A stretch of 64,000 nucleotides of DNA from a bacterium (lineage in GTDB: Bacteria; Armatimonadota; Zipacnadia; Zipacnadales; Zipacnadaceae), in NCBI GenBank assembly GCA_030603495.1, contig JAUVXR010000004.1, forward strand, positions 1 through 64,000, written 5' to 3'. The notes under the pieces are model-generated. The model saw only the letters and a program-made list of their open reading frames with translations, did not search any database and had not been told where the DNA came from. The position numbers were made by a program, and so were the translations under genes. This document shows positions 31,842 to 46,515 of the stretch, in pieces. The first letter of the stretch is position 1, and each line of letters starts with the position of its first letter.

Positions 31842-32807
31842 TTACTGTTGTGTTTCCCAATATATCACCTGCGACCGACGGCCCGGAACTCTCCACTTGA
31901 TCTCACCATAGAAGAACGATAGCCAATCGTAGAGGATGTGAGTGTTCTCCTTTATCTGCCAACGATACGGGAGAGGCACGTCCGCGCAGTGTTGATGAAT
32001 CCACTCGTTGACCTCACCAAATCGCATTTCCTGTCGAGCCCGTATCTGTCCCACTATAGATTGTACGAAGGGTTGCGCACAAAAGCGTTCTTTCAGTAAC
32101 ACACGAAAACTCTCCGAGCTTGTGCTCTCGTCTATGCCATACAGGGCCAAGTCGTGAATGGCCCTTCGAATAATCTCCGGCTCATACTCGCTCTGCCTGT
32201 CCGATACAAAATACTTCTCAAGCTGAAGGGGGTTTGTGGTAGCTGGCAAAGCATTGACAGAGAAGCTCTTCCGCGAATGCTCAAACGGCCCGATCTGTGG
32301 GCGCTGCTCCTGAGGCTTATCATTTTCGTGTAGGAACTGGCTCGCCTGCTCAAAGATACCGTCATCGACAAGGATGCTACCGTCGATGATGTGGAACACC
32401 TGTGCCCAATCGTGCGGAGTCAACAAGGACCAGCAGCCGACCTCAATGTTCTGGATCGGCCCGTATCCTAGTCCCGCGTTTGTCACATTGGCGCTGCCGA
32501 CAAAACACTCATTTGATGCAAACACCATCAGCTTGAGATGTATCCGGTCGTTAACATACAAAGGAATACGGCGCGCACTCAATTCCTCATATATACTGAG
32601 ATCGGATACCTTAGATAGGATATCTTCTGACCGCCACCTCGTTACAATCTTGAGCTGTCCAGTATGCTTGCACCCGTCTAGGAGCCGGACGAGACTCCCC
32701 CGCTGAATGAATGGCACGATCAGCAGCAAACAGTCATCGTGGGCCAATACCTCTTCCACAGCCGAGCCCACGGGTTGCCACACAAGCGGATAACTATCGT
32801 CGGGCAT
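31842..32807 (-). CDS. PLD-family (single HKD) nuclease-like protein, putative defence effector
   Basis: RIHLKLMVFASNECFVGSANVTNAGLG (HxK...GSxN); 6 nt downstream of the GHKL gene. Confidence 0.82.
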   Translation of the reverse strand: MPDDSYPLVWQPVGSAVEEVLAHDDCLLLIVPFIQRGSLVRLLDGCKHTGQLKIVTRWRSEDILSKVSDLSIYEELSARRIPLYVNDRIHLKLMVFASNECFVGSANVTNAGLGYGPIQNIEVGCWSLLTPHDWAQVFHIIDGSILVDDGIFEQASQFLHENDKPQEQRPQIGPFEHSRKSFSVNALPATTNPLQLEKYFVSDRQSEYEPEIIRRAIHDLALYGIDESTSSESFRVLLKERFCAQPFVQSIVGQIRARQEMRFGEVNEWIHQHCADVPLPYRWQIKENTHILYDWLSFFYGEIKWRVPGRRSQVIYWETQQ

Positions 32808-32813
32808 CGGGGA

Positions 32814-34604
32814 CTATTCCTCTGATTCCTGCAGAAAATCACGTGCTATCCGACCCCAGTCACTTCGTATATCTTCAAGCTGCTGCCGAAGCGGGTCTCC
32901 CGCTACATCTTCTAGCCGAGCCCAAGCGGTAAGCAGCAACTTGAGCGCAGTAAGGGCTGGAGTGTCATCATCCTGATCCTTAAGGATATCGAACAAATGC
33001 TCGCTTGCAGGATGCCGCGAATTGATCAGGATAATGAGAATGCCTCCTCTTGACCGAATATCAAAAAACGCGAAACCCGGAACGGGGGCGTCTTGAAACA
33101 AGAACTTCGTGTTTCGCTTCACGTATTCAACAGCGATTTCCTTAGCATCCCTTTCATCCACCCCCTCGGCAATCAACTCCACGGCCAATTCCTTCTCTCG
33201 TTCCTTTTTCGGCAGCTTCTCGTCTTGGTCACTATTGCTTTCCTCCCCAGTTTGCTCACGACGCCGCTTGGTGGCCTTTGTTGCTATATCCTCAGCCGAA
33301 CCAGGAGGAGGAGCAACGCCCCCACTACGCGCCCCTTCCCGTAGCCGCTTGATCTGTTCTCGCATCGTGCGCAGTGTCTTCGTGATCTCTTGCGAGACCT
33401 CGTAAATCACTAGCCGCGGATCACTTGATTCACGTAGCATCTCCCGATACTCCCCGGGCGTCAAACCTTCCATTTTGGCATCCTCATCGAGATCGCATTG
33501 CCCAAAAGCCGTGGCCGCCTGCTTGTTGTTTGTGACGCCAAAGATGTTGTCCAGTTCCGGACCGAATTGCACTTCTACACCCCACCACCTCTCTACCGGA
33601 TCATAACGAATGTCGAAAGTATTGTTCATCTCTATTTCGCGACTTGCCCTAACAATTGAGACGCCTATATTCCTATTGGTGTGCTTCCCAATTGGATCAC
33701 TCCCACCGCGTTCGCGGGCCTCTTTGGTAGATATCGAAAAACGCAAAACCACCTTGTGTGTATCACTGTTTGTGCTGACCTCTAAATCGTACTCCGTGAA
33801 CAAATCAAACGCTGCTTTTTCATCAAACGGAGGCGGAGCGCATGTTCCTGTCATGACGTATAGTGGATCGTTCGGTAGAACATCGCGATCAATCTTGTTT
33901 GTGGTCTGTCCAGCAGATCCCTCAAAAGACGAAAGGCGGATTCTAGCTTTCCCGCCTTTAAGGAAATAGCGGTACATGCGTCCGACGAGCAATTCAGCAT
34001 TGTTCAAGAAGGCAGTGCTAGTCTTCCATCGTATTCGATCAATGGTCGACCACACAACCAGCGTTCCATGCTCCCCAATATCGTCCCTTACCAATTTCCG
34101 CCACTCGTCAGGAATCTCAGATGCCTGAGGCTCCGGAACGCTTCTCAACGTGCCCGCAAGTACCTCGTCAATATCAAGGTAGGTATGCAGGCACTCGGAA
34201 TTCTGCCAAGACCAGACATCGACGCGTCGGCATTGAGAAATAGAAGCATTGGGAAGGCCCATGCCGAATTTGCCGATGCCATATTGGGTCTCAGCCTGCA
34301 GATGAGTTCCGTTTCCAAACTGGAGGGCCATCCGAAGGGTATCAGCATCCATTCCAGAAGCATTATCATACACGGCAATCTTGCTGATGAACTGACGACG
34401 ACGTTCTGTCACAATGTCAACGGCATCTACGCAGAGAAGCTCAACCTCCGTGCATTCATTGACGTCGCGGCCAGCCTGGATGCTGTTGTCAACAAGCTCA
34501 GCTATCGCGTGCGCCGTATCGCGGTAGCCAGAGTCCCGCATCGACCTAATCGCTAGATGAGGCGGCAGGATCTCGTAATCGCCTGTCGAGTTCTGTGCTG
34601 TCAT
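32814..34604 (-). CDS. GHKL (HSP90/MutL/MORC-like) ATPase, putative defence protein
   Basis: AIAELVDNSIQAG (N box), VYDNASGMD (G1), YGIGKFGMGLPNASIS (G2); start chosen at RBS-spaced ATG 34604. Confidence 0.88.
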   Translation of the reverse strand: MTAQNSTGDYEILPPHLAIRSMRDSGYRDTAHAIAELVDNSIQAGRDVNECTEVELLCVDAVDIVTERRRQFISKIAVYDNASGMDADTLRMALQFGNGTHLQAETQYGIGKFGMGLPNASISQCRRVDVWSWQNSECLHTYLDIDEVLAGTLRSVPEPQASEIPDEWRKLVRDDIGEHGTLVVWSTIDRIRWKTSTAFLNNAELLVGRMYRYFLKGGKARIRLSSFEGSAGQTTNKIDRDVLPNDPLYVMTGTCAPPPFDEKAAFDLFTEYDLEVSTNSDTHKVVLRFSISTKEARERGGSDPIGKHTNRNIGVSIVRASREIEMNNTFDIRYDPVERWWGVEVQFGPELDNIFGVTNNKQAATAFGQCDLDEDAKMEGLTPGEYREMLRESSDPRLVIYEVSQEITKTLRTMREQIKRLREGARSGGVAPPPGSAEDIATKATKRRREQTGEESNSDQDEKLPKKEREKELAVELIAEGVDERDAKEIAVEYVKRNTKFLFQDAPVPGFAFFDIRSRGGILIILINSRHPASEHLFDILKDQDDDTPALTALKLLLTAWARLEDVAGDPLRQQLEDIRSDWGRIARDFLQESEE

Positions 34605-34785
34605 TTCCATGTCTCCTTCTTGTTGCCCTGATTCTCTCGACTCGTACTGTACTGCACCCAGCATGGACACAGTCTTAGCATTAGGCAGTGGCTTGTGTCA
34701 ATACACGGTCCCGCTGCTGGGATAGCGCCAGCACCCAACGTGCAGGTTCTTTGTCTTGTCTCCAAGACAGTCAGAGGCAAGTTAG

Positions 34786-36405
34786 TCATTCCCATATCTC
34801 ATCCCAATAGTTGAACGCCTCGGCAATGCTTCGAAAACCAGGTAATTGATCCACAACCGTGACAACCTTGCACGTTTCGTTGCCACCAGCCTTCGGGCCT
34901 CGTGCGGCCCGGCCAACCATTTGACTGTAAAGGACAACAGACTTCGTGGGTCGTGCAATCACTGCACAGCAGGTTCTTGGCGCGTCAAATCCCATTGTTA
35001 GCACACCATAATTACAGAGGATTTGGATGCCGCCCGGTTTTTTGTAGTGCGCAATAAGTTGCCGTCGCCTCGCAGGGGGCGTATTGCCAGTTACAGCCGC
35101 AGCGCGGAGTCCTTTGGCTGCCAATATACTCGCAAGCAATACTGCGTGCTCAACAGAACACGCAAACACGATTATCTTCCCTTCCGTTCTTGCCTCTTCA
35201 AGCAAGCGGGTAACGATGAGGAAGTTGCGTTTATGATCTTGTCCGAGGCGAGCGATGATCCAATCTGGAAGCTCCAGTTCTGTGCGAAGTCGACTAATCT
35301 CCTCGCTCGTGAGAACCAAGTCCTCCCCGGGCGCATAGCGGATGTAGTCGTACTCGACCTTTGCCAAATACCCTTGATCCTGTAGATAATCCACTGGACT
35401 GTCGTAGCCATCTACCTTCAGCGTGACCTTCTGTCGTTTAAAGAACTGTGCCAACTCCATGTCTTGATGAGCGTCGAGCAAACTTCGCCCTGGAGTAGCC
35501 GATAGTCCAAGAATGCCCGTTCTAGGATCTACCGCCAGGAGATTGAGCAGGTGCTGGTATGTCGGAGCAACGGCTTGATGGGCTTCATCCATTACCACCA
35601 ATGTTACTCGGCGGGCTAGTTGCAGGAATACTTCCTGCTCCGACAAACTTCTTCTGTATAGAAGCTGCAATCCTCCAACGAGAAAACCACCGGAGATTTC
35701 TTTGAGATCCGACCGATACTGGCCAAAGGCGCGATGCACAGATACGGAACGGTTGCCAAGGATACCCCATGCTCTTTCGAACTCCTCAGCAGCTTGCTCG
35801 CAGAGCTCTTCACTGTGTGCCAACCACACCACTACTTCACTCTCACCGAGCCGGTCACGCAGTAGATGAGATATGACATTCATCGCCGTCCTAGTCTTCC
35901 CTGCGCCCGTCGGCATGTGAAGGAGAACTCTCGGCCGCATCTCTTCACTGAGGAAAGAGATCATTTCACGACATGCCTGTATTTGATGGGTAAAGAGACT
36001 GTAATCCGGCACAATCTGGACCGAAGACGGCTTCGCAGTTCCATCGCCACGGTCTTCAGGAAGACTGCACCCAAAAAAAGCAAAAATGACTTCGCACACA
36101 ACACTGCCTTTGGGAATCGGGATGTTTCGGATCGACTCCCAAGGATTATCCGCAGGAGAAAGACCGAGAAGTCTGGCTAGCCTCTCGGCATCCTTCCGGG
36201 ACAACGCATCAGTAATATCACAGCGGCGTCGTTTGTCCAGAAGAAGATCCTCTGGACCGATCTGTTCTATGACCAGTTCCGCGAGCTGGGAGGGCTGAAG
36301 GTGCTTGAGCCCGAGAAGCTCCAAAAGAGTCACTGTGCTCTCGCCCATCAATCTGGCAAGTTCAGCAGCTCCAAGGCGCGCTAATGTCTTTGACAGTTTC
36401 GTCAC
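34786..36405 (-). CDS. SF2 DEAH-box helicase (type I/III restriction R-subunit-like)
   Basis: LLHMPTGAGKTRTAMNVI, VVMDEAHQAVAPTYQHLL, LGLSATPGR, YSQMVGRAARGPKAGG. Confidence 0.92.
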   Translation of the reverse strand: MTKLSKTLARLGAAELARLMGESTVTLLELLGLKHLQPSQLAELVIEQIGPEDLLLDKRRRCDITDALSRKDAERLARLLGLSPADNPWESIRNIPIPKGSVVCEVIFAFFGCSLPEDRGDGTAKPSSVQIVPDYSLFTHQIQACREMISFLSEEMRPRVLLHMPTGAGKTRTAMNVISHLLRDRLGESEVVVWLAHSEELCEQAAEEFERAWGILGNRSVSVHRAFGQYRSDLKEISGGFLVGGLQLLYRRSLSEQEVFLQLARRVTLVVMDEAHQAVAPTYQHLLNLLAVDPRTGILGLSATPGRSLLDAHQDMELAQFFKRQKVTLKVDGYDSPVDYLQDQGYLAKVEYDYIRYAPGEDLVLTSEEISRLRTELELPDWIIARLGQDHKRNFLIVTRLLEEARTEGKIIVFACSVEHAVLLASILAAKGLRAAAVTGNTPPARRRQLIAHYKKPGGIQILCNYGVLTMGFDAPRTCCAVIARPTKSVVLYSQMVGRAARGPKAGGNETCKVVTVVDQLPGFRSIAEAFNYWDEIWE

Positions 36406-36471
36406 GCGTTGTCCCTGTAACAGCCCGAGTTATGCTTATCCAATGGGCAAAGCATCGTGTCCTCTACAGTA

Positions 36472-37284
36472 TCAGAGATGGCAGATGGCGCAGCCTTCGA
36501 TTTCATCCATCGACGGGACTTCGTGTCGAGGCATGCTAGTTATATCATCAAGGGTCCGCCCGTCTTTCCAGGTGAACCGCTTGCCGTTCAACTCTGTCTC
36601 GTATTCCTTGGCTTTCTCAAATAGGTCTGGATGGCGTTCCCGTAGGCCTTGCCATTCCCCAATTTGCTGATAGAAACAGAAGTAACATCCAGACCGTGAT
36701 CTCCACTCGTAGTATTTCGGAAGGCCAAGCCCGGATTCCTCGAGGATGCGTTTCACGTCCGCAAGCTGGATACCATCATCCTTGAAGGGGTATACCGGCA
36801 CAATGTTAGGGCGCTCAGACAGCTTGGGAGGTTTCTTCGGCTTGTAGCCATCTCTGTCCTCATCAGCTCGTATGCCAATGTAATTGAAGGTATTGTGTTC
36901 ACCGACATAACGCTCAAACGGAGCAATCTTAAGAACCCTTGTGCACCAGCGGCTTCGCGGACTAGGCAAGAAACCGCCATAGACCTCTCGCAGCCAAATG
37001 TCGAAGGGGTTTCGGCCAGGCTTGGCTTGAATCTGTAAGGTCTCGAGAGCAGTGAGACGCGTGACCTGCACCCCTAGCAAACCCTCCAGTCGCTTGATAT
37101 ACTCATATGTTTCCGGCAATTCACAGCCGGTGTCACAAAAAACGTATTCAGTCGGAAGTTCTGGATAGTTCTGCCTAAGGTAGATGGCGAGTGCGGCAGA
37201 GTCCTTTCCTCCAGAAACGCTCACAATATGCTTGATCTCCGGCTGCTCTGTAATCACAGCAAGTGCTTCTTTAAGTGTGGTCAT
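36472..37284 (-). CDS. sspD: PAPS-reductase-family/ATP-pyrophosphatase, SspD/DndC-like
   Basis: PP-loop SVSGGKDSAALAIYL; Cys positions SRWCTR, SGCYFCFYQQ, GCAIC; overlaps the sspC-like stop. Confidence 0.75.
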   Translation of the reverse strand: MTTLKEALAVITEQPEIKHIVSVSGGKDSAALAIYLRQNYPELPTEYVFCDTGCELPETYEYIKRLEGLLGVQVTRLTALETLQIQAKPGRNPFDIWLREVYGGFLPSPRSRWCTRVLKIAPFERYVGEHNTFNYIGIRADEDRDGYKPKKPPKLSERPNIVPVYPFKDDGIQLADVKRILEESGLGLPKYYEWRSRSGCYFCFYQQIGEWQGLRERHPDLFEKAKEYETELNGKRFTWKDGRTLDDITSMPRHEVPSMDEIEGCAICHL

Positions 37285-40200
37285 TATTGCTACCTTTCAT
37301 GATCTTCTGCAGGATCATGATAGACTTGTGCGAGCCGACCAAGTCAGCAAGCTGTCCGTAGAAATGCCCGATTCGCTCAGTAACAAATTGTGCCAACCCC
37401 TCGCGAATCTCCTGTGACTCGCTCAGGTCAAGAACATCCGTGCTATTGCTGAGGACGGCAGTTTCGATCCTGTGAGTGAGCTCCTGAATCTTGTTCTCAA
37501 ACTCAATGGCCGTGCTATCATCCCAGTCCTCCGTAGAACGGCCGACAAGCAATAACGCAAGAGAATTCACAAAAATGACCTCATCCTCATAGGCCATCTT
37601 CATTCGAGACAACAACCCACGGGCTATGCTTGGCAAGCGGGTTGAAGTAATTGATTCTGGAAAATAACTCGCCCACTGCTTCGCTGTCTTTTGTATGCTA
37701 GGCATCCGATCTGCTTGGTCGCGTGACAACGCCTGGTAGATCGAATCACAGGCCTTCCGCACGTATGTGTGCGACACGCTCTCGATCTCGTCCTTTAATG
37801 GTTCAATCACTTTCCGCGCCTGTCCGTTGTGTCGATAGTCGAACCCACATGAAGAGGGCAACGCTTGCAGAAGGAATGCGAGAGGGTCAGATGTACGTGA
37901 GTCTCTGAGGAGCCGTTGAAACTCACGCGCTTCCGGCGACAATGATTCAGCTGAGAGCGAAGCCTTGGGTAGTTGGAATAGCCAACTCTGGATCGCATCA
38001 TAGGTCGCGCGGACGGCATCTGTATCTGAATCCACTCGTTGCCGTCCAAGGAAAATACTGCGTATTTCTCCGAAGTATGAGTCGATGTGCTCGTCAAGCT
38101 CGATAACCACAAGCTCATATTCATCTGGATGCCTACACACGTCTTCAATCACAGTCGGCAATATGTCTGTGATATATTCCTGATTGCGGCAGAGTGATAC
38201 GGCCTTTGCGAAGGCTTTCAGCCCTGCCCCAAAAAATATTGGCAGTAGGCCTCTCCGAATGCCGTACGGCGGCAACATGAGCGTCTTGAAAAGTTCGGAT
38301 GGCTTTTTGGGGTCACCGGAAGGAATTTCAAAGAACTCTCGAAGCACGCCCCAGATACTCTTGAGGCCAATATCATCACCTAAGCTGCTTGTCTTGCCTG
38401 AGCAATATCCGTAATCACCCGATGCTTCCTCGCGATAAAGGCCAGTATTGCACAAGATAGTCCTGAACATGGACGCATCAGGTGTTGTTGCTTTGAGACC
38501 CAAGTCACAGGTTCCGTGCCTCTCCAGAATGCCCATAAGCAGCTTCTTACGGGAGTTCACAATCGTACCGCTAGGTTTATGGCGGTTGATGAGCTCGTTG
38601 TGGATACGAGGAGTATTGGAGAATACATCGAGAGTTATCCGCGATAACTCTCGACGCATATCGCTAGGGCTCTCTATAGCCAACTGCTCCCCTTGGTGGA
38701 ACCAGCAGGGCCCGTCCGCCATCGGTCTTAGTAGTTTGTCGAGTGTCGCTTGGAGATTGCCCCGCGCATCGTCCAGCATTTGCTGAATCTCTGGCAACAC
38801 AAGCGGGTCTTCGCCGGTGATATCCGAGTTATGTTGCATGTTGGACAGGCACCAGACTTCCAGGGCTGCCTCACGCAGGTTGAGGGGAGTGCTCGGGATG
38901 GCAGTAACGATTTGGGGATTATGTATGTGATTCTCTGCGGCCTCCCTCGCATCACAGAGCTCCTCGCCTGTTTCTGCGACTAGATGGATGATTTTCCCAT
39001 CACAGCCAATATCAACACCAGTCAACTGATTCCCGTTGCCCAAGCCTGCAAAGTCATCGGCTGTTATGTAAACGCCGGACCAGTAACGATTCACGCCATG
39101 AACCGTGTTGTATTCGATAGGCTTCCATGCCTCGGGCCTCGCCTCCTTGTTCAAGAACGCCAAGACATCGAAGACAGCACGATGACGTGCCTTCTCGTCG
39201 GCGAGACGACCTCGAAGGTCCACATCAGTTCCGTGCCAAACGGCAACTTCCTGGCTATGTGTTCGATACAGTAGTAGCTTTTCATTGATAAGCTGCGAGA
39301 CGGCTACGTTCCAAGGTTTGCTCCCCCCGTAACCCTGAACCGACCATATCAGTGTAGACTTCTCAACACGAGAGCGCTCCCCTTTGGTGCCCATGCCAAG
39401 CAGGCAGGCTGTCTTTAGAACGTTAATACACCGTTCGTCCCCGCCCGTCTTCGTTATGGCACTTTCGGTTTCGAGCCACTGCTTGTGTGTGCCGCCAATT
39501 GCTGTATCCCCACGCATCGACGGAGCGAAGTAGTCGTAGAGATCAGAAACGCCGAACCCATCGCCCAGCATAGTCGCATACAGGAAGGTGAACAATGTGC
39601 GTTCATTCTGTGCAACACGGGCCGATACCCGTGGAAGAAGGTACACTGCTGCTGGATCGGCGGGAAATGTACGTTTGAACAACGAGGCAAGATCGTCAAG
39701 CGTGAAGTCAGCGAAGAGGCCATGCTTGTTCTTGGCAGTCCTCGCAAGTAACCGAAGCACATTCTTGGTCGGCAGGTTAACAGACCCACGGTTTGACTCA
39801 ATGATTTCCGCAAGCAATCGGTATGTTTCCTTACTATCGTCGACATACTGAATCACCTCAAATCGGCCGGATATCTTTTGCCATTCTGCTCTAACGGCCT
39901 GCGTCATCTGTTGAGCGTAATGCAGCATGCTCTGATGCAGTGTCAACCCAAGTGTGACCGGTAAATCACGCGAACGGGACGCGTACTCCGCTATGACTTG
40001 GATATCCGATAGCTCAGCCGCGCGACCGTCTGATAATAGCGTCTCTAAGTGACGCCCCGATTCGTCCCAAAGGATGCAAATCTGGTCGAGACCCGCTTTG
40101 CCACATGTTTTCTTTAGTTGATGAAGGAAGGCCACCGCGTCCTCAATGGTGGAGACTTGCATATTCTGAAGCGATCTGCTCTGTCGCCCTAGCTTGTTGC

Positions 40201-40627
40201 GGGTCACGGCAGCCATAGCAGCATCACGCAATGCCTGCGCTAGGTTACCTTGGAAACCATGCAACGCCAGGACAATTCCCCGTTTCCTAGACCGTCTTCT
40301 CGCCAATAGCATCTTGCGTAAGCCTGGGCTCACTGCCTCAACGCGCTTCTCGATTGCCGAAAGCACGGTTTGTGCGTTAGGTCTGTTTTCGATAACTTGG
40401 AGTAAATAAGTGAGTGTCAGCGATTTTCCGGAGCCGTAGGGTGCCACGACCAGGAAGGATCGCTCCTTGGTGTGACCAAGGAGTCCGCGAACAAGAGGGA
40501 CGCTCTTTGTTGTTGGCCTGTAATGAGCAATACGCTCCGGCTCATCGGCATCGAAGCAAAGGTTGATCGAGCGCAGGAACGCTTCGGTATCAAGATTTCC
40601 TGTCATGGACAGTTTACGCTTTGGCAT
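37271..40627 (-). CDS. sspC: Large P-loop ATPase, SspC-like
   Basis: Walker A VVAPYGSGKS, Walker B-like ICILWDESG; 1118 aa; TAATG overlap with the upstream DUF4007 gene. Confidence 0.65.
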   Translation of the reverse strand: MPKRKLSMTGNLDTEAFLRSINLCFDADEPERIAHYRPTTKSVPLVRGLLGHTKERSFLVVAPYGSGKSLTLTYLLQVIENRPNAQTVLSAIEKRVEAVSPGLRKMLLARRRSRKRGIVLALHGFQGNLAQALRDAAMAAVTRNKLGRQSRSLQNMQVSTIEDAVAFLHQLKKTCGKAGLDQICILWDESGRHLETLLSDGRAAELSDIQVIAEYASRSRDLPVTLGLTLHQSMLHYAQQMTQAVRAEWQKISGRFEVIQYVDDSKETYRLLAEIIESNRGSVNLPTKNVLRLLARTAKNKHGLFADFTLDDLASLFKRTFPADPAAVYLLPRVSARVAQNERTLFTFLYATMLGDGFGVSDLYDYFAPSMRGDTAIGGTHKQWLETESAITKTGGDERCINVLKTACLLGMGTKGERSRVEKSTLIWSVQGYGGSKPWNVAVSQLINEKLLLYRTHSQEVAVWHGTDVDLRGRLADEKARHRAVFDVLAFLNKEARPEAWKPIEYNTVHGVNRYWSGVYITADDFAGLGNGNQLTGVDIGCDGKIIHLVAETGEELCDAREAAENHIHNPQIVTAIPSTPLNLREAALEVWCLSNMQHNSDITGEDPLVLPEIQQMLDDARGNLQATLDKLLRPMADGPCWFHQGEQLAIESPSDMRRELSRITLDVFSNTPRIHNELINRHKPSGTIVNSRKKLLMGILERHGTCDLGLKATTPDASMFRTILCNTGLYREEASGDYGYCSGKTSSLGDDIGLKSIWGVLREFFEIPSGDPKKPSELFKTLMLPPYGIRRGLLPIFFGAGLKAFAKAVSLCRNQEYITDILPTVIEDVCRHPDEYELVVIELDEHIDSYFGEIRSIFLGRQRVDSDTDAVRATYDAIQSWLFQLPKASLSAESLSPEAREFQRLLRDSRTSDPLAFLLQALPSSCGFDYRHNGQARKVIEPLKDEIESVSHTYVRKACDSIYQALSRDQADRMPSIQKTAKQWASYFPESITSTRLPSIARGLLSRMKMAYEDEVIFVNSLALLLVGRSTEDWDDSTAIEFENKIQELTHRIETAVLSNSTDVLDLSESQEIREGLAQFVTERIGHFYGQLADLVGSHKSIMILQKIMKGSNNDHT

Positions 40628-41502
40628 TACCGTCCCTTCCTTCGGCTGCGGTAATACTCAGCGACCCACTCAAGCGGTTTCCACTGTGGGACAGCTATCG
40701 CTCTCTGCCCAGCATGGCCCCGAATGCGAATATTGTCGCAATCTTTCATGAGTTCGACAAGCATCTCATACAATGATTCGCTGGTCAGTACGAAAGCACG
40801 ACCAGGCCCGCCCGGCTCACGCATCAGCCGTTGGATGGCAATGTCACCTTGACCCGCATCAGGAAACGCCCTTGCTACACAGTATCCAAACACACTAGGT
40901 GGTATGTTTTTCGGTGCGTGATGCAGTTGGTAATACCCCGATGATCGATAGTAGCTCATGAGTCCAAGTTCGCGGAACGGGCAATCTCTAACATCCTCTG
41001 GATCAGTGTTTTCTGTCGGGATCTGTCGAGAGTAGCTTGACAGCAAACAAGCCACATCGCGCTCAAGGGTGTTTATGCTGGGGACTCGCCCGTTACCTAG
41101 TTGGATGTAATGCCGGAGGTTCTCCGCTACGACTGCACGGTCAAATCGTTCGAGGTTGAACGAGTTAAAGAACCAATACCACGTATCTGCGTATGGAGGA
41201 TGGCTGATCAAATTGGTGTGAAGCAACCACCATGTGCCTGTATCGACGAAGTACCGATCATGCTTAAACACGGTATCCGCAAAATCCGTCTGCAGGAGAT
41301 GGCCTCTCTGGTCCGGGTGCGCTGCGGCTAGACCGGTAGCCTGCAGCCAGTGGCGAATTGACTTCGCCATGTTCGAACCGACACCAAGGAAGTCGGCAGC
41401 ATGCTCGTGGAACAGCTTATCGGGCTCTTCGATAAGCATTTGAAGGCCTTTGTGCAGCCAGCCTTCTCTTACCGAAAATGTTTCGTGGCCTGAGAATCGC
41501 AT
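40627..41502 (-). CDS. sspB: DUF4007 protein, SspB-like
   Basis: MRFSGHETFSVREGWLHKGLQML is the canonical DUF4007 opening; operon position between desulfurase and ATPase. Confidence 0.75.
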   Translation of the reverse strand: MRFSGHETFSVREGWLHKGLQMLIEEPDKLFHEHAADFLGVGSNMAKSIRHWLQATGLAAAHPDQRGHLLQTDFADTVFKHDRYFVDTGTWWLLHTNLISHPPYADTWYWFFNSFNLERFDRAVVAENLRHYIQLGNGRVPSINTLERDVACLLSSYSRQIPTENTDPEDVRDCPFRELGLMSYYRSSGYYQLHHAPKNIPPSVFGYCVARAFPDAGQGDIAIQRLMREPGGPGRAFVLTSESLYEMLVELMKDCDNIRIRGHAGQRAIAVPQWKPLEWVAEYYRSRRKGR

Positions 41503-41517
41503 TCTATCTCCAGTTGA

Positions 41518-42732
41518 TCATGCGGGGCTTCGTGCCACCATGAGTCCTTTCAACTCCGAATATGTTCCGGTAATCACTTGAACAGCTTCGTCAACTTCTT
41601 CAGGGACATTCTGCTCGGAGAAACTAAAGCGAATGCTCTCAAATGCCTGTTCCGCCGTCAGCCCCATTGCCAGCAACACGTGCGAGGGTTCAGGAATCTG
41701 GGAGGTGCAAGCGGAACTCTGCGAACAGTATATACCCCTGTTGTTCAACCTTGCCATGAATGCCTGTCCGTCCACGCCTGGAAAGCGAAGATTCGAGGTA
41801 TTGCACACTCTGCCGGCATTCCCCGAGTTCACGACGACCCCCTGGCATCGAGCCAATATTGCATTCTCAAACCGATCTCGAAGGTGGGCAAGCCGAGTGC
41901 AGATATTAGGCATTCGGCACCGTCGCAACGCCGCCGCCTTGCCGATTCCTGCGATTCCCAGCAGATTCTCCGTTCCCGGACGAAGACCGGATTCTTGGGT
42001 TCCACCACCGAGCATTGGTGAAAGCGGTGTTCCCGGGCGGCGATACGTTACTCCGATACCCTTTGGAGCGTGAAACTTGTGCCCACTAAACGTCATGTAG
42101 TCTATCGGGATATCCGTAACCGCTATCTGCAGTTTTCCGACGGCCTGAGCTGCATCCGTATGGAATAACACACCACGGGATCGGCAGATAGCGGCAATGT
42201 CACTAATAGGCTGAATTGTACCGGTTTCATTGTTCACCCATTGAATCGAGACCAATGATGTGTCAGGCGTTACCAACTTGTCCGCGGCATCAAGCAGGAC
42301 CAGCCCGTTGTCATCAACAGGAATCTCGTGAACCGTCACGCCCTCGGCTTTTAGAAAGCCCGCTTTCTGGCGGATCGACTCGTGCTCGATAGGAGTAATA
42401 ACAACCTTGGAGGGACGTTTTCTAGTGAGTGCGTGTAGTACCCAGTTGTTGGCCTCGGTCCCGCTGCTAGTGAAGAAGATGTGCTCAGTGGAAGCTCCGA
42501 TCAGTTCCGCAACCGCCTCGCGAGCGATAGATAACACGTGCCGTGCGGCATCGCCAGCTTGGTGCGCACTCGACGGGTTTGAGGGGCCAATAAGAAGAGC
42601 CTCCTGGATTGCGCCATGGACTTCTGGCAAGAGAGCTGTTGTTGCATTGTTATCGAGGTAGATCACCGTCTCATCGCCCACGTGATCCCGCAGAATCTCC
42701 AGATTATCCCCAAATACAGCTTGTTTCTCCAT
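41518..42732 (-). CDS. sspA: Cysteine desulfurase, SspA/DndA/IscS-like, with an atypical N-terminal extension
   Basis: VIYLDNNATTALLPEV, WVNNETGTIQPIS, HTDAAQAVGKL, FSGHKFHAPKG, SSACTSQ. Confidence 0.88.
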   Translation of the reverse strand: MEKQAVFGDNLEILRDHVGDETVIYLDNNATTALLPEVHGAIQEALLIGPSNPSSAHQAGDAARHVLSIAREAVAELIGASTEHIFFTSSGTEANNWVLHALTRKRPSKVVITPIEHESIRQKAGFLKAEGVTVHEIPVDDNGLVLLDAADKLVTPDTSLVSIQWVNNETGTIQPISDIAAICRSRGVLFHTDAAQAVGKLQIAVTDIPIDYMTFSGHKFHAPKGIGVTYRRPGTPLSPMLGGGTQESGLRPGTENLLGIAGIGKAAALRRCRMPNICTRLAHLRDRFENAILARCQGVVVNSGNAGRVCNTSNLRFPGVDGQAFMARLNNRGIYCSQSSACTSQIPEPSHVLLAMGLTAEQAFESIRFSFSEQNVPEEVDEAVQVITGTYSELKGLMVARSPA

Positions 42733-42807
42733 TTACTATACATAAACGGCCCCAATCCCCGACATGATAGCTACTGCCTGCGACAACAGTAACTCGCTCT
42801 CTCGAGC

Positions 42808-43875
42808 TCACAAAGAACTGCCAAAGGCAAGTCCGCGATCCCCAAGACTAATGCCCGACTCCAGCCCCGGCAAGTGTTCAATCGGGATATTGCCTCGTTC
42901 GAGGTCTTCCTCGTGGTGTACATAGTCGCCTGCTCGCCACTCTCCCTGCACATAGACTCCGAACTCCACCGGCTCTTGTTCCTCTACATACACCTGGCCG
43001 ACCAACTGGAGGCGACACCAGCCGTCATATCCTTGCTGCTTAGGGATATGGAAGTCAAGGTACATGCATTCGTCCGCGCCCGGCAATATCGGCCTCCTTG
43101 GCTCCCATGCCAATACCCACCTCCCGGGAGTGGTCGACACCAAACTCCGCCACTCATCCTGTGGACGCCGATGGACTGGTTGGCTGCCTCGCCCGTTTAC
43201 TAACCGAAGTGCTACATTTCTGGCTGGTGCCATCCCTGTGTTTTTCACCCGCACGCATAACCGGATCGACACTTCCGCTCCCCCTGGAACTATGTTATAC
43301 CATGGTGGATCTATTGTCAGCCGGGGGCGCCGCCTCGCCCCCACCATGTCCATTATCTCGTAATCCAGCATTGGTACGCAGCCTGCGCATCCACGCCTGT
43401 AATAGATCGCACGCTTGCGTACTTGATGCGGCGCTGTATAGCTCCGCGGCACAAATATCACATATCCATGTCGACCCTCAGACTGATTCGGGTCTGGGAA
43501 CTGGTGCATCCTGAAGTTCTCAGGCGGCACCGCCGGCAGCAATCCACTCAACAGAATGTCCTGCAGCCATTGCAGCGAACGCTCCTTGGTCGTCCCCTCA
43601 ATTTTGCTTGGTTTTCTGTATCCCTTATCATCATCCGTCCCTTCTTCTTTCACGCCGACAATAATAACACCACCTTCTGAATTCAAGAAAGAACATACTG
43701 CCCTGCAAAGGTTTACAGGGTCCTCCTGCAGGACCTGAGCGCTCTTATACTCTAGGTTATGGGCTTCCTCCTGCTTGTCGGCGACGAGTTGCTGAATGTG
43801 TGCTGACTCGCCAGCCGGGAAGTCCTCCGGCTTGTACCCACCGTACAGCTTTTCCTTTTCCCCTTCATTCGGCAT
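42808..43875 (-). CDS. AlbA_2/Schlafen-like putative DNA-binding protein
   Basis: EEAHNLEYKSAQVL...VCSFLNSEGGVIIVGVKEEG...IYYRRGCAGCVPM; start at MPNEGEKEK (43875) preferred. Confidence 0.75.
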   Translation of the reverse strand: MPNEGEKEKLYGGYKPEDFPAGESAHIQQLVADKQEEAHNLEYKSAQVLQEDPVNLCRAVCSFLNSEGGVIIVGVKEEGTDDDKGYRKPSKIEGTTKERSLQWLQDILLSGLLPAVPPENFRMHQFPDPNQSEGRHGYVIFVPRSYTAPHQVRKRAIYYRRGCAGCVPMLDYEIMDMVGARRRPRLTIDPPWYNIVPGGAEVSIRLCVRVKNTGMAPARNVALRLVNGRGSQPVHRRPQDEWRSLVSTTPGRWVLAWEPRRPILPGADECMYLDFHIPKQQGYDGWCRLQLVGQVYVEEQEPVEFGVYVQGEWRAGDYVHHEEDLERGNIPIEHLPGLESGISLGDRGLAFGSSL

Positions 43876-43895
43876 TGCTTGTCCTCGCCCACAGT

Positions 43896-44012
43896 TTACG
43901 CCTGTCCACCGCTTGCTGTCAATCGCCACACACACCGCCGCTGCATGTCCAGAGAGACGCCTTTGCGGGCTTGCTCCTGTGTGCTAACTGGCGTATAGAG
44001 TGCAGCTTTCAT
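43896..44012 (-). pseudogene. Serine recombinase N-terminal stub
   Basis: MKAALYTPVSTQEQARKGVSLDMQRR matches the resolvase N-terminus (YTxVSTxEQA...GxSLxxQ), then unrelated sequence and a stop. Confidence 0.8.
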
Positions 44013-44557
44013 TTCCTCGCGAATGTCGCCGACACAAAGGGCGGCGCAGGCGATACCGAGATCTGGATCTGCTTCAAGAGTTGCTCCAACGGGGTCCCAA
44101 GGAGCTTCGTCTGGATGTCCTTCTCCAGCGAAGACAGCGTCACCTCGCCGCTCCTCAGGGTGTCGTGCAGTAGTTTGACACAATCCTCACGCTGTCGGGC
44201 GCTCAACGAACCAAGCACAATCAGTCCGTATTCCGGGTCTCGCTGAGTCCCGTGCTTCTTAGCTTCCTGGAGCTATTGCGGCGGCACCTTGGTAACAAGC
44301 AGAATCGGGAACTTGAAGTACATCTCCTCCTCTTGGGCCGCATCGAGCTCGCCCAGATACGCATCAATGACCTCGGTGCAGAACAGCGGGTACTCCTCGG
44401 CGCCTACCAACAGTATGTCGTCGCCAAGCTGCGCGCCCATCCTATAGAAGTCGTCATTGGCCAGCCTGTGCTCTTCCGTCAGGGCGTCCTCAAGGACGAA
44501 CACATAGTAGCCCTTTTCCGTCGGCACGCGGTTCAGACACGAGCAGCGGTAACTCAC
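44009..44557 (-). pseudogene. Hypothetical protein split by one in-frame TAG; overlaps the recombinase start by ATGA
   Basis: ORFs 44273..44557 and 44009..44218 share a frame: ...LLVTKVPPQ*LQEAKKHGTQRDPEYGLIVLGSLSARQREDC... Confidence 0.55.
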
Positions 44558-45597: not shown

Positions 45598-46495
45598 TCG
45601 GGAGCAATCAGTGCAGGGCACAGAGAATGTTGTGCGCAGCAGGAAAGGATATGGAGAATCGCAGCTAGTATCGGGGTGTATTGGGTAAGTTATGCGCAGC
45701 AGGGAGGAATTGGTGCAGGACACAGAGAATGTTAGACGTAGCAATAGAGCATATGGGAAATCCCAGGTACTGAGCGGTTGTAGAGTCCTGTTCCATGACC
45801 CAAGCGGCCACTGAATAGCCATCTCTGCACGCACTTGGTGCTGCAGAATAGTACCCAGAGAAGCGCGATCTTGGCCCGAATTTGGAGGTATGACTGATGA
45901 AGAGCTTCTGTTGCTGCCGTTTCCTACTGGCTGTAGCGATATTGGTAATCTCCCTGGTCTGGTGGACGACAGGCTGGGGGCAGATTGTCGTAGCTATCGC
46001 CGCCGCCCTTCTGGTCATAATGAGCATCTTCTCCAACTGCTGCTGTTGTCGGGGAAAACAGAATGAATCGGCTTGCGTGACCGGGCCGCCGTCTTCCCCC
46101 GAGGGAGACTGGTAGACCAGCGCAGGAAGCGGTCTAGGGACCGTGCCACGCTTGAGCAAGGCTTAAAGCATAGGCAGACCGCGAACGGCGCGTCTTGGGC
46201 GTTCTGTGGGACGCGCGACGGGCCTGTCCTGTGGCCCTGCCTATCTCCGCCCCCCCACAGTTGAATGTTGCCCACGCGCGCCGTCGTATTCCCCTTATTT
46301 AGTCCACTCTGAATAATCTGCAAGAACTGGGAAAATCTTAGAAAAATTCTCTTCGCCGAAGTAACCCTTGACGCACGCTAACGGTGAATCTGAGCAGCCA
46401 ATGATCTGTAGTCTCGCTAACAGTCGGCAGGAATCAGTGCTGCAAACAGAGAATGCTAAACGCAGCAACAGAGGGGATGGGAAATCCCAGCTAAG
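45598..46495. repeat. Three dispersed ~70-bp repeats (45598-45666, 45695-45766, 46424-46495)
   Basis: Shared core GGAAT(C/T)(A/G)GTGC..(A)CAGAGAATG(T/C)T...CGCAGCA...ATGGGAAATCCCAGCTA. Confidence 0.75.
45897..46115 (+). CDS. Small Cys-cluster membrane protein
   Basis: GGAGG then ATG; MKSFCCCRFLLAVAILVISLVWWTTGWGQIVVAIAAALLVIMSIFSNCCCCRGK. Confidence 0.6.
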   Translation: MKSFCCCRFLLAVAILVISLVWWTTGWGQIVVAIAAALLVIMSIFSNCCCCRGKQNESACVTGPPSSPEGDW

Positions 46496-46515
46496 ACGTA
46501 TTTGAGGAACTCCGT

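What the first reader, a model, noticed from the sequence alone, without database searches (positions are those of the whole stretch)
31842..42732. Phosphorothioation-type (Ssp-like) modification module in one operon with a helicase, MORC-like ATPase and PLD nuclease
Seen: seven co-oriented, tightly packed or overlapping genes encoding cysteine desulfurase, DUF4007, large P-loop ATPase, PAPS-reductase/PP-loop protein, DEAH helicase, GHKL ATPase and single-HKD PLD protein. Established: a desulfurase with a DndC/SspD-like PP-loop protein and SspB/C-like proteins makes DNA phosphorothioate. Known partners I recall are DndFGH, SspE, SspFGH and archaeal PbeABCD. Inference: here the restriction arm is helicase + GHKL + PLD, a combination I do not recognise as a described PT partner.
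Basis: partly seen in the sequence, partly recalled or inferred. Interest (0 to 1): 0.92.

Follow-up and report, generated by a model that had tools for sequence, protein, structure and literature searches.

The report
Phosphorothioate defence with helicase–MORC–nuclease arm
A seven-gene bacterial operon pairs the known machinery that marks a cell's own DNA with sulfur with three genes (a helicase, a MORC-like ATPase and a nuclease) that recur beside that machinery in at least eleven bacterial phyla and look like an undescribed type of DNA-cutting arm for this anti-phage system.

Summary
In detail: seven co-oriented genes at 31842-42732 (-). The first four are SspA, SspB, SspC and SspD (PADLOC E 1e-94 to 1e-157), a single-strand DNA phosphorothioation (PT) module. 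The last three are a RadD/PbeA-like SF2 helicase, a GHKL ATPase whose nearest solved relatives are eukaryotic MORCs, and a single-HKD PLD nuclease with an intact active site. They are not SspE and not SspFGH: SspF/SspG models hit a control locus at E<1e-140 but not these proteins. PADLOC and NCBIfam have no model that claims them, and I found no paper describing the combination. The trio is not a chance neighbour. Of 80 GHKL relatives from genomes, 66 lie within 10 kb of SspB/C/D, as do 12/12 full-length plasmid hits; 28 loci carry all seven genes, and the association spans at least 11 phyla. The trio sits where SspFGH sits in sister modules. The nuclease slot is swappable: in one large group the PLD is replaced by a Cap4-like PD-(D/E)XK nuclease and the helicase changes with it, while the GHKL stays. 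Best reading: a third SspABCD restriction arm in which helicase and GHKL license a nuclease against DNA lacking the PT mark. The mechanism is inferred, not shown. New variant of a known kind.

The parts
41518..42732 (-). SspA-type cysteine desulfurase (sulfur donor)
   Evidence: PADLOC SspA E=2e-120 (DndA 7e-118); Pfam Aminotran_5
40627..41502 (-). SspB, DUF4007 DNA-binding/nicking subunit
   Evidence: PADLOC SspB E=4.7e-102; Pfam DUF4007 E=4.3e-71; only DUF4007 in the assembly
37271..40627 (-). SspC large P-loop ATPase
   Evidence: PADLOC SspC E=5.2e-157, 522 bits, against BrxC 219 bits
36472..37284 (-). SspD PAPS-reductase-like sulfurtransferase
   Evidence: PADLOC SspD E=1.2e-94 (DndC only 2e-5); Pfam PAPS_reduct
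34786..36405 (-). SF2 (ResIII/DEAH) helicase with an unassigned N-terminal ~130 aa, RadD/PbeA-like core
   Evidence: Pfam ResIII, DEAD, Helicase_C; NCBIfam RadD 119 bits, below the equivalog cut-off of 720; PDB RadD 6jde E=1.8e-24; PADLOC PbeA 78 bits over the helicase part only
32814..34604 (-). GHKL (HATPase_c_3) ATPase, MORC/paraMORC-like; ORF open to 34670, likely start ATG 34604
   Evidence: Pfam HATPase_c_3 E=1.4e-18; profile hits human MORC2/3/4 in the PDB; ATP-site motifs and TNNKQ lysine invariant in 12 relatives; start site
31842..32807 (-). single-HKD PLD-family nuclease with a helical C-terminal half
   Evidence: Pfam PLDc_2 above cut-off; catalytic H90 K92 S105 N107 N120 E122 in 64/64 sequences; AF2 model pLDDT 92; Foldseek: SauUSI, NucT, Nuc

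Best explanation
This is a phosphorothioate-based restriction-modification system. SspABCD puts a sulfur into the backbone of host DNA, probably on one strand at a short motif. The last three genes form its restriction arm, an alternative to SspE and SspFGH. The most likely cycle (inferred): the GHKL protein dimerises around DNA as an ATP-gated clamp, as MORC and MutL proteins do; the helicase translocates or unwinds DNA; together they license the PLD nuclease to cut DNA that does not carry the PT mark, so incoming phage or plasmid DNA is damaged and self DNA is spared. Shown here: gene content, intact active-site residues, conserved association with SspBCD, use of the SspFGH position, and joint exchange of helicase and nuclease around a constant GHKL. 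Inferred: PT chemistry in this host, DNA cleavage, reading of the mark, and which subunit reads it.
For: SspABCD by profile. Conserved trio next to SspBCD in 12/12 full-length plasmid hits and 66/80 genome loci, 44/49 when both flanks are at least 8 kb. Helicase adjacent to the GHKL in 76/80. Genome-level association in a cyanobacterial order, p=2e-7. Sister SspABCD modules carry SspFGH at the same place. PLD active site invariant in 64/64; nuclease-type PLD fold, best match the ATP-dependent restriction enzyme SauUSI, which joins PLD and helicase in one chain. In 16 loci a Cap4-like nuclease (PADLOC effector endonuclease E=2e-15; Foldseek Cap4; invariant E39, D48, Q62-x-K64) replaces PLD, and the helicase differs too (24% identity between classes, 45-46% within) while the GHKLs of the two classes still share 43%.
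Against: No experiment. A substantial minority of loci, notably the Nostoc group, lack both nuclease types next to the GHKL, so the nuclease may sometimes be elsewhere or dispensable. Two Anaerolineae loci have a helicase-GHKL pair with no Ssp genes. The census started from GHKL similarity and kept only the best 80 of 296 hits. Some SspABCD partners (SspE) are activated by PT rather than blocked by it, so the direction of discrimination is a guess.
Confidence: 0.72

Rival explanations
1. The trio is a PT-sensing (SspE-like) arm: PT-marked host DNA activates it, and it then nicks any replicating unmodified DNA. Without PT it is silent.
For: SspE, the best studied SspABCD partner, is stimulated by PT. 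Helicase-GHKL pairs persist without SspBCD in two Anaerolineae loci, so the pair at least is tolerated without PT.
Against: Multi-subunit ATP-driven partners (SspFGH, DndFGH) attack DNA lacking PT and are toxic without the modification genes. No SspE-type domain is present. The Anaerolineae pairs have no PLD or Cap4-like nuclease next to them, so their harmlessness says little.
Confidence: 0.2
2. The trio is an independent defence system (a type IV-like or MORC-type restriction system) that merely travels with SspABCD in defence islands.
For: MORC and paraMORC ATPases occur with SFII helicases and nucleases in methylase-based R-M operons. Agrobacterium L009 carries the trio beside an FtsK-type (SspH-like) gene set.
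Against: Association is specific and tight: SspB/C/D within 10 kb in 66/80 loci, on plasmids and chromosomes of many phyla, with the same gene order and strand in seven loci. Three distant GHKL relatives were checked: one lies beside DruA instead, one has a PAPS-reductase gene near it, and one lies near SspC/SspD.
Confidence: 0.15
3. The trio belongs to the modification side: GHKL and helicase load or regulate SspBCD, and the PLD protein processes or repairs PT sites.
For: DndB-like regulatory genes sit between SspD and the helicase in several cyanobacterial and planctomycete loci. Some loci lack an adjacent nuclease.
Against: SspABCD modules exist without the trio: closest sister modules have SspFGH instead. 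Exchange of PLD for a Cap4-like nuclease fits an effector slot.
Confidence: 0.07

Closest known systems
SspABCD-SspFGH (Vibrio anguillarum FF-93; PMC8092258)
   Same: Same modification module; a three-gene arm at the same position beside SspD; sister modules with 60-62% identical SspD carry SspFGH there.
   Different: SspF/G/H are a Walker-A protein, an unknown and an FtsK-like translocase; none of the three genes here matches SspF/G/H models.
SspABCD-SspE
   Same: Same modification module.
   Different: SspE is one GTPase-nuclease protein; no such protein lies in this operon. One GmrSD_N protein of 431 aa lies on another contig.
DndCDEA-PbeABCD (archaea; PMC6459918)
   Same: PT-linked; PbeA has PLD plus ResIII helicase domains; among defence models the helicase here is most like PbeA's helicase part.
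   Different: PLD and helicase are separate genes here; GHKL in place of the SMC-like PbeC; Ssp, not Dnd, modification.
MORC/paraMORC restriction-modification operons (Iyer 2008, PMC2292703)
   Same: GHKL ATPase with SFII helicase and RE-fold or HKD nuclease in R-M operons.
   Different: Those are described with DNA methylases; PT genes are not mentioned in the text searched.
SauUSI (PDB 7CLG), ATP-dependent type IV restriction enzyme
   Same: PLD nuclease plus SF2 helicase; best PDB match of the PLD protein and a match of the helicase.
   Different: Single chain, cuts modified DNA (own knowledge), no GHKL, no modification genes.
VcSduA (GHKL-Shedu; PMC12137116)
   Same: GHKL ATPase proposed to gate a nuclease in phage defence.
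   Different: Nuclease fused to the GHKL; no helicase; no PT genes.

Membership tests
SspABCD phosphorothioation module | SspA, SspB (DUF4007), SspC and SspD encoded together | tested here: met
   PADLOC E 2e-120, 5e-102, 5e-157, 1e-94 in one co-oriented run
SspABCD phosphorothioation module | PT in host DNA | not testable with these tools
   needs LC-MS/MS
SspFGH | three genes homologous to SspF, SspG, SspH (FtsK-like) | tested here: not met
   No SspF/G/H model hit; same library hits SspF and SspG of a control locus at E 4e-167 and 2e-145
SspE | GmrSD-type (DUF262) GTPase-nuclease beside SspABCD | tested here: not met
   absent from the operon; the only GmrSD_N protein in the genome is on another contig, 431 aa
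PbeABCD | PbeA: PLD fused to ResIII helicase, with SMC-like PbeC, next to Dnd genes | tested here: not met
   PLD and helicase separate, no PbeC hit, no DndD hit among the operon proteins; helicase partly like PbeA
BREX type 4 | PglZ and BrxL with BrxC, PAPS reductase and DUF4007 | tested here: not met
   no PglZ or BrxL hit among the eight proteins scanned; SspC model beats BrxC 522 to 219 bits; the rest of the window was not scanned for them
MORC/paraMORC GHKL ATPases | GHKL ATPase motifs followed by S5 domain with conserved lysine | tested here: met
   invariant E58, D61, N62, D102, G106, G131/G133, K383; MORC2/3/4 are the PDB hits. The S5 assignment rests on the motif only
MORC/paraMORC GHKL ATPases | assignment to a paraMORC1-5 subfamily | tested here: inconclusive
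   618 aa with no Pfam match outside the GHKL domain, so no sign of the paraMORC3 C-terminal nuclease; reference sequences not available
MZA system | MzaB-E with Z1 helicase-like and AIPR proteins | tested here: not met
   GHKL region scores 64-70 bits with MzaB against a cut-off of 850; no other Mza hit
PLD (HKD) nucleases | HxK...GSxN...E active site in a Nuc-like fold | tested here: met
   invariant residues, AF2 model and Foldseek matches NucT, Nuc, SauUSI

The most novel reading that the evidence does not exclude
A third class of PT restriction arm built on a MORC-type GHKL clamp: the GHKL is the constant sensor/gatekeeper that reads the SspABCD mark, and interchangeable helicase-nuclease cassettes (PLD or Cap4-like PD-(D/E)XK) plug into it. 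Prokaryotic MORC relatives would then be readers of a DNA backbone mark.
Probability: 0.4. Interest if true: 0.78.

Novelty: new variant of a known kind. Interest (0 to 1): 0.64.

Why it matters
In a 2021 survey (PMC8092258) only about 15% of 2,678 SspBCD loci had SspE or SspFGH nearby, so the effector of most Ssp systems was unexplained. This trio is a widespread candidate: 13 of 55 DUF4007-bearing genomes in a sampled cyanobacterial order have its GHKL. It also gives a specific modification partner for a family of prokaryotic MORC relatives, and the nuclease swap makes the roles of the subunits directly testable.

Tried and rejected
SspFGH, SspE, PbeABCD, BREX type 4 and MZA membership were tested and rejected. 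A single-protein scan of viral contigs found nothing; the alignment found five, four of them with Ssp genes. Promoter and terminator counts were no better than shuffles. hhalign found no relation between the PLD and the other third-gene family; Pfam had no confident name for the latter, while PADLOC and Foldseek did. Its AF2 model is mediocre (pLDDT 78, pTM 0.51) and most top Foldseek hits are all-beta matches I discount; only Cap4 agrees with the motif and the PADLOC hit. The upstream Schlafen/AlbA_2 gene (42808-43935) was considered as an eighth component and left out: no relative in any other fetched locus.
Full report
CHECK OF THE OBSERVATION. PADLOC, Pfam and NCBIfam agree on the domains. 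SspA, SspB, SspC and SspD are hit at E 2e-120, 5e-102, 5e-157 and 1e-94, so the modification half is a regular SspABCD module. The genes overlap or nearly abut from SspA to SspD; gaps of 66 and about 115-180 bp flank the helicase, and 6 bp separate GHKL and PLD. The GHKL most likely starts at ATG 34604. A promoter/terminator scan was uninformative.

THE THREE LAST GENES. The helicase has Pfam ResIII, DEAD and Helicase_C domains, its nearest solved relative is RadD, and among defence models it is nearest to the helicase part of PbeA. The GHKL protein has all ATP-site motifs, and an alignment profile finds human MORC2, MORC3 and MORC4 in the PDB. The PLD protein has one HKD motif; H90, K92, S105, N107, N120 and E122 are present in all 64 aligned sequences, while the Asp of HKD is not kept. 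Its AlphaFold model (pLDDT 92) matches SauUSI, NucT and Nuc, with a helical C-terminal half not covered by Nuc-type nucleases.

NOT KNOWN PARTNERS. The SspFGH paper describes a Walker-A protein, an unknown protein and an FtsK-like protein. PADLOC models for SspF and SspG hit a Microvirga plasmid module at E 4e-167 and 2e-145 but none of the three genes here. Pbe is PLD and helicase in one protein with an SMC-like partner and Dnd genes. The 2024 and 2026 surveys of PT and BREX systems do not mention a MORC/GHKL partner in the text searched, nor did other literature searches. Iyer et al. 2008 described MORC and paraMORC ATPases with SFII helicases and nucleases in methylase-type R-M operons. Subscription journals are not in this library, so absence there is not shown.

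CONSERVATION. tblastn of the GHKL against plasmids gave 12 records with at least 80% coverage. I read 11 of these loci plus one partial hit from Treponema: all 12 loci have a helicase before the GHKL and Ssp genes nearby; the twelfth full-length record was read later and has the full set too. They come from Alphaproteobacteria, Cyanobacteria, Bacteroidota and a spirochaete. A genome scan with a GHKL alignment found 296 relatives and kept the best 80. 66 have SspB, C or D in the fetched stretch, 44 of 49 when both flanks are at least 8 kb; 76 have the helicase adjacent. Record titles show Armatimonadota, Chloroflexota, Planctomycetota, Proteobacteria, Gemmatimonadota, Cyanobacteria, Bacteroidota, Elusimicrobia, Actinomycetota, Acidobacteriota (Pyrinomonadaceae) and Firmicutes. 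28 loci have all seven genes and seven have them in the window's order and strand. Of the five full-flank exceptions, two genomes have DUF4007 elsewhere, one locus (L093) has SspA nearby, and two Anaerolineae/Chloroflexi loci hold a helicase-GHKL pair among metabolic genes with no Ssp.

UNBIASED DIRECTION. In 291 genomes of the window's phylum (Armatimonadota, judged from shared contigs with titled records) 16 have DUF4007 and three have the full-length GHKL; two of the three have DUF4007, and the third sits on a contig cut inside SspC. In 196 genomes of a cyanobacterial order 55 have DUF4007 and 14 the GHKL, 13 both, Fisher p=2e-7. In 11 of these 13 the two genes lie on the same contig within about 20 kb. 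Related genomes are not independent, so this p is optimistic. Most Ssp genomes lack the trio; it is one of several partners.

SAME SLOT AS SspFGH. The plasmid SspD proteins nearest the window's (60-65% identity) were inspected in two cases, Microvirga and Sphingomonas; both carry SspFGH-type genes directly after SspD (models confirmed for Microvirga). The window's SspC is nearer to theirs (30%) than to those of many trio loci (23-24%). Restriction arms have thus been exchanged between SspABCD lineages.

SWAPPABLE NUCLEASE. In 16 loci (Burkholderiales, Pseudomonas, Xanthomonas, Rhizobiales and others) the third gene is a ~360 aa protein with no detectable relation to PLD. It has invariant E39, D48 and Q62-x-K64, matches a PADLOC effector endonuclease over its first 95 residues (E=2e-15), and its model matches Cap4 in the PDB (model confidence only moderate). 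In these loci the helicase is also different (mean 24% identity to the PLD-class helicases, against 45-46% within classes), while the GHKLs of the two classes share 43%. Because loci were found by GHKL similarity, GHKL conservation is partly built in; the joint change of helicase and nuclease is not.

MECHANISM. The simplest reading is a PT-based restriction-modification system with a GHKL-gated helicase-nuclease arm that cuts unmarked DNA. Gene content, active sites, association and module exchange are shown; PT chemistry, cleavage and mark reading are inferred. The main rival is a PT-activated (SspE-like) arm.

VERDICT. Real, conserved, and as far as I can see undescribed as a PT partner; its parts belong to known families. 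New variant of a known kind.

Noticed in passing
window 32001-44000: The island has GC 0.52-0.54 against 0.58-0.62 to its left, and none of six genus mates has the GHKL or DUF4007: likely horizontally acquired.
   Followed up: partly
window about 43896-44080 (-): Fragment AALYTPVSTQEQARKGVSLDMQRR, which by eye looks like the start of a serine recombinase, out of frame with its surroundings; Pfam gives no hit. Possible remnant of the element that brought the island.
   Followed up: partly
window 42808-43935 (-): Schlafen/AlbA_2 domain protein 75 bp upstream of SspA on the same strand; no relative in any other fetched locus.
   Followed up: yes
L083 and L102, around 8.4-11.8 kb: Two Anaerolineae/Chloroflexi loci keep a helicase-GHKL pair between rhamnose isomerase and a glutamyl-tRNA synthetase gene, with no Ssp, PLD or Cap4-like gene; possibly a domesticated pair.
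   Followed up: partly
L009 5705-20997: Agrobacterium plasmid with helicase-GHKL-nuclease directly followed by an FtsK-type (SspH-like) gene set and SspD: two restriction arms beside one modification module.
   Followed up: partly
L016 7866-10169, L025 5965-8298, L069 6961-8325: DndB-like proteins between SspD and the helicase in cyanobacteria and a planctomycete, although the modification genes are Ssp, not Dnd.
   Followed up: partly
L111 11977-25002: Rhodobacteraceae plasmid with a distant GHKL (29%), a PbeA-like helicase and a DrmC-like PLD protein in a different order, near SspD and SspC: a possible third variant.
   Followed up: partly
L104: The closest relative (GHKL 71%, SspD 82%) is on a contig classed as viral in IMG/VR, with an Mrr-type restriction endonuclease gene after the PLD gene.
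   Followed up: partly
window 45600-46506: Three diverged copies of an 81-nt direct repeat just outside the island.
   Followed up: no
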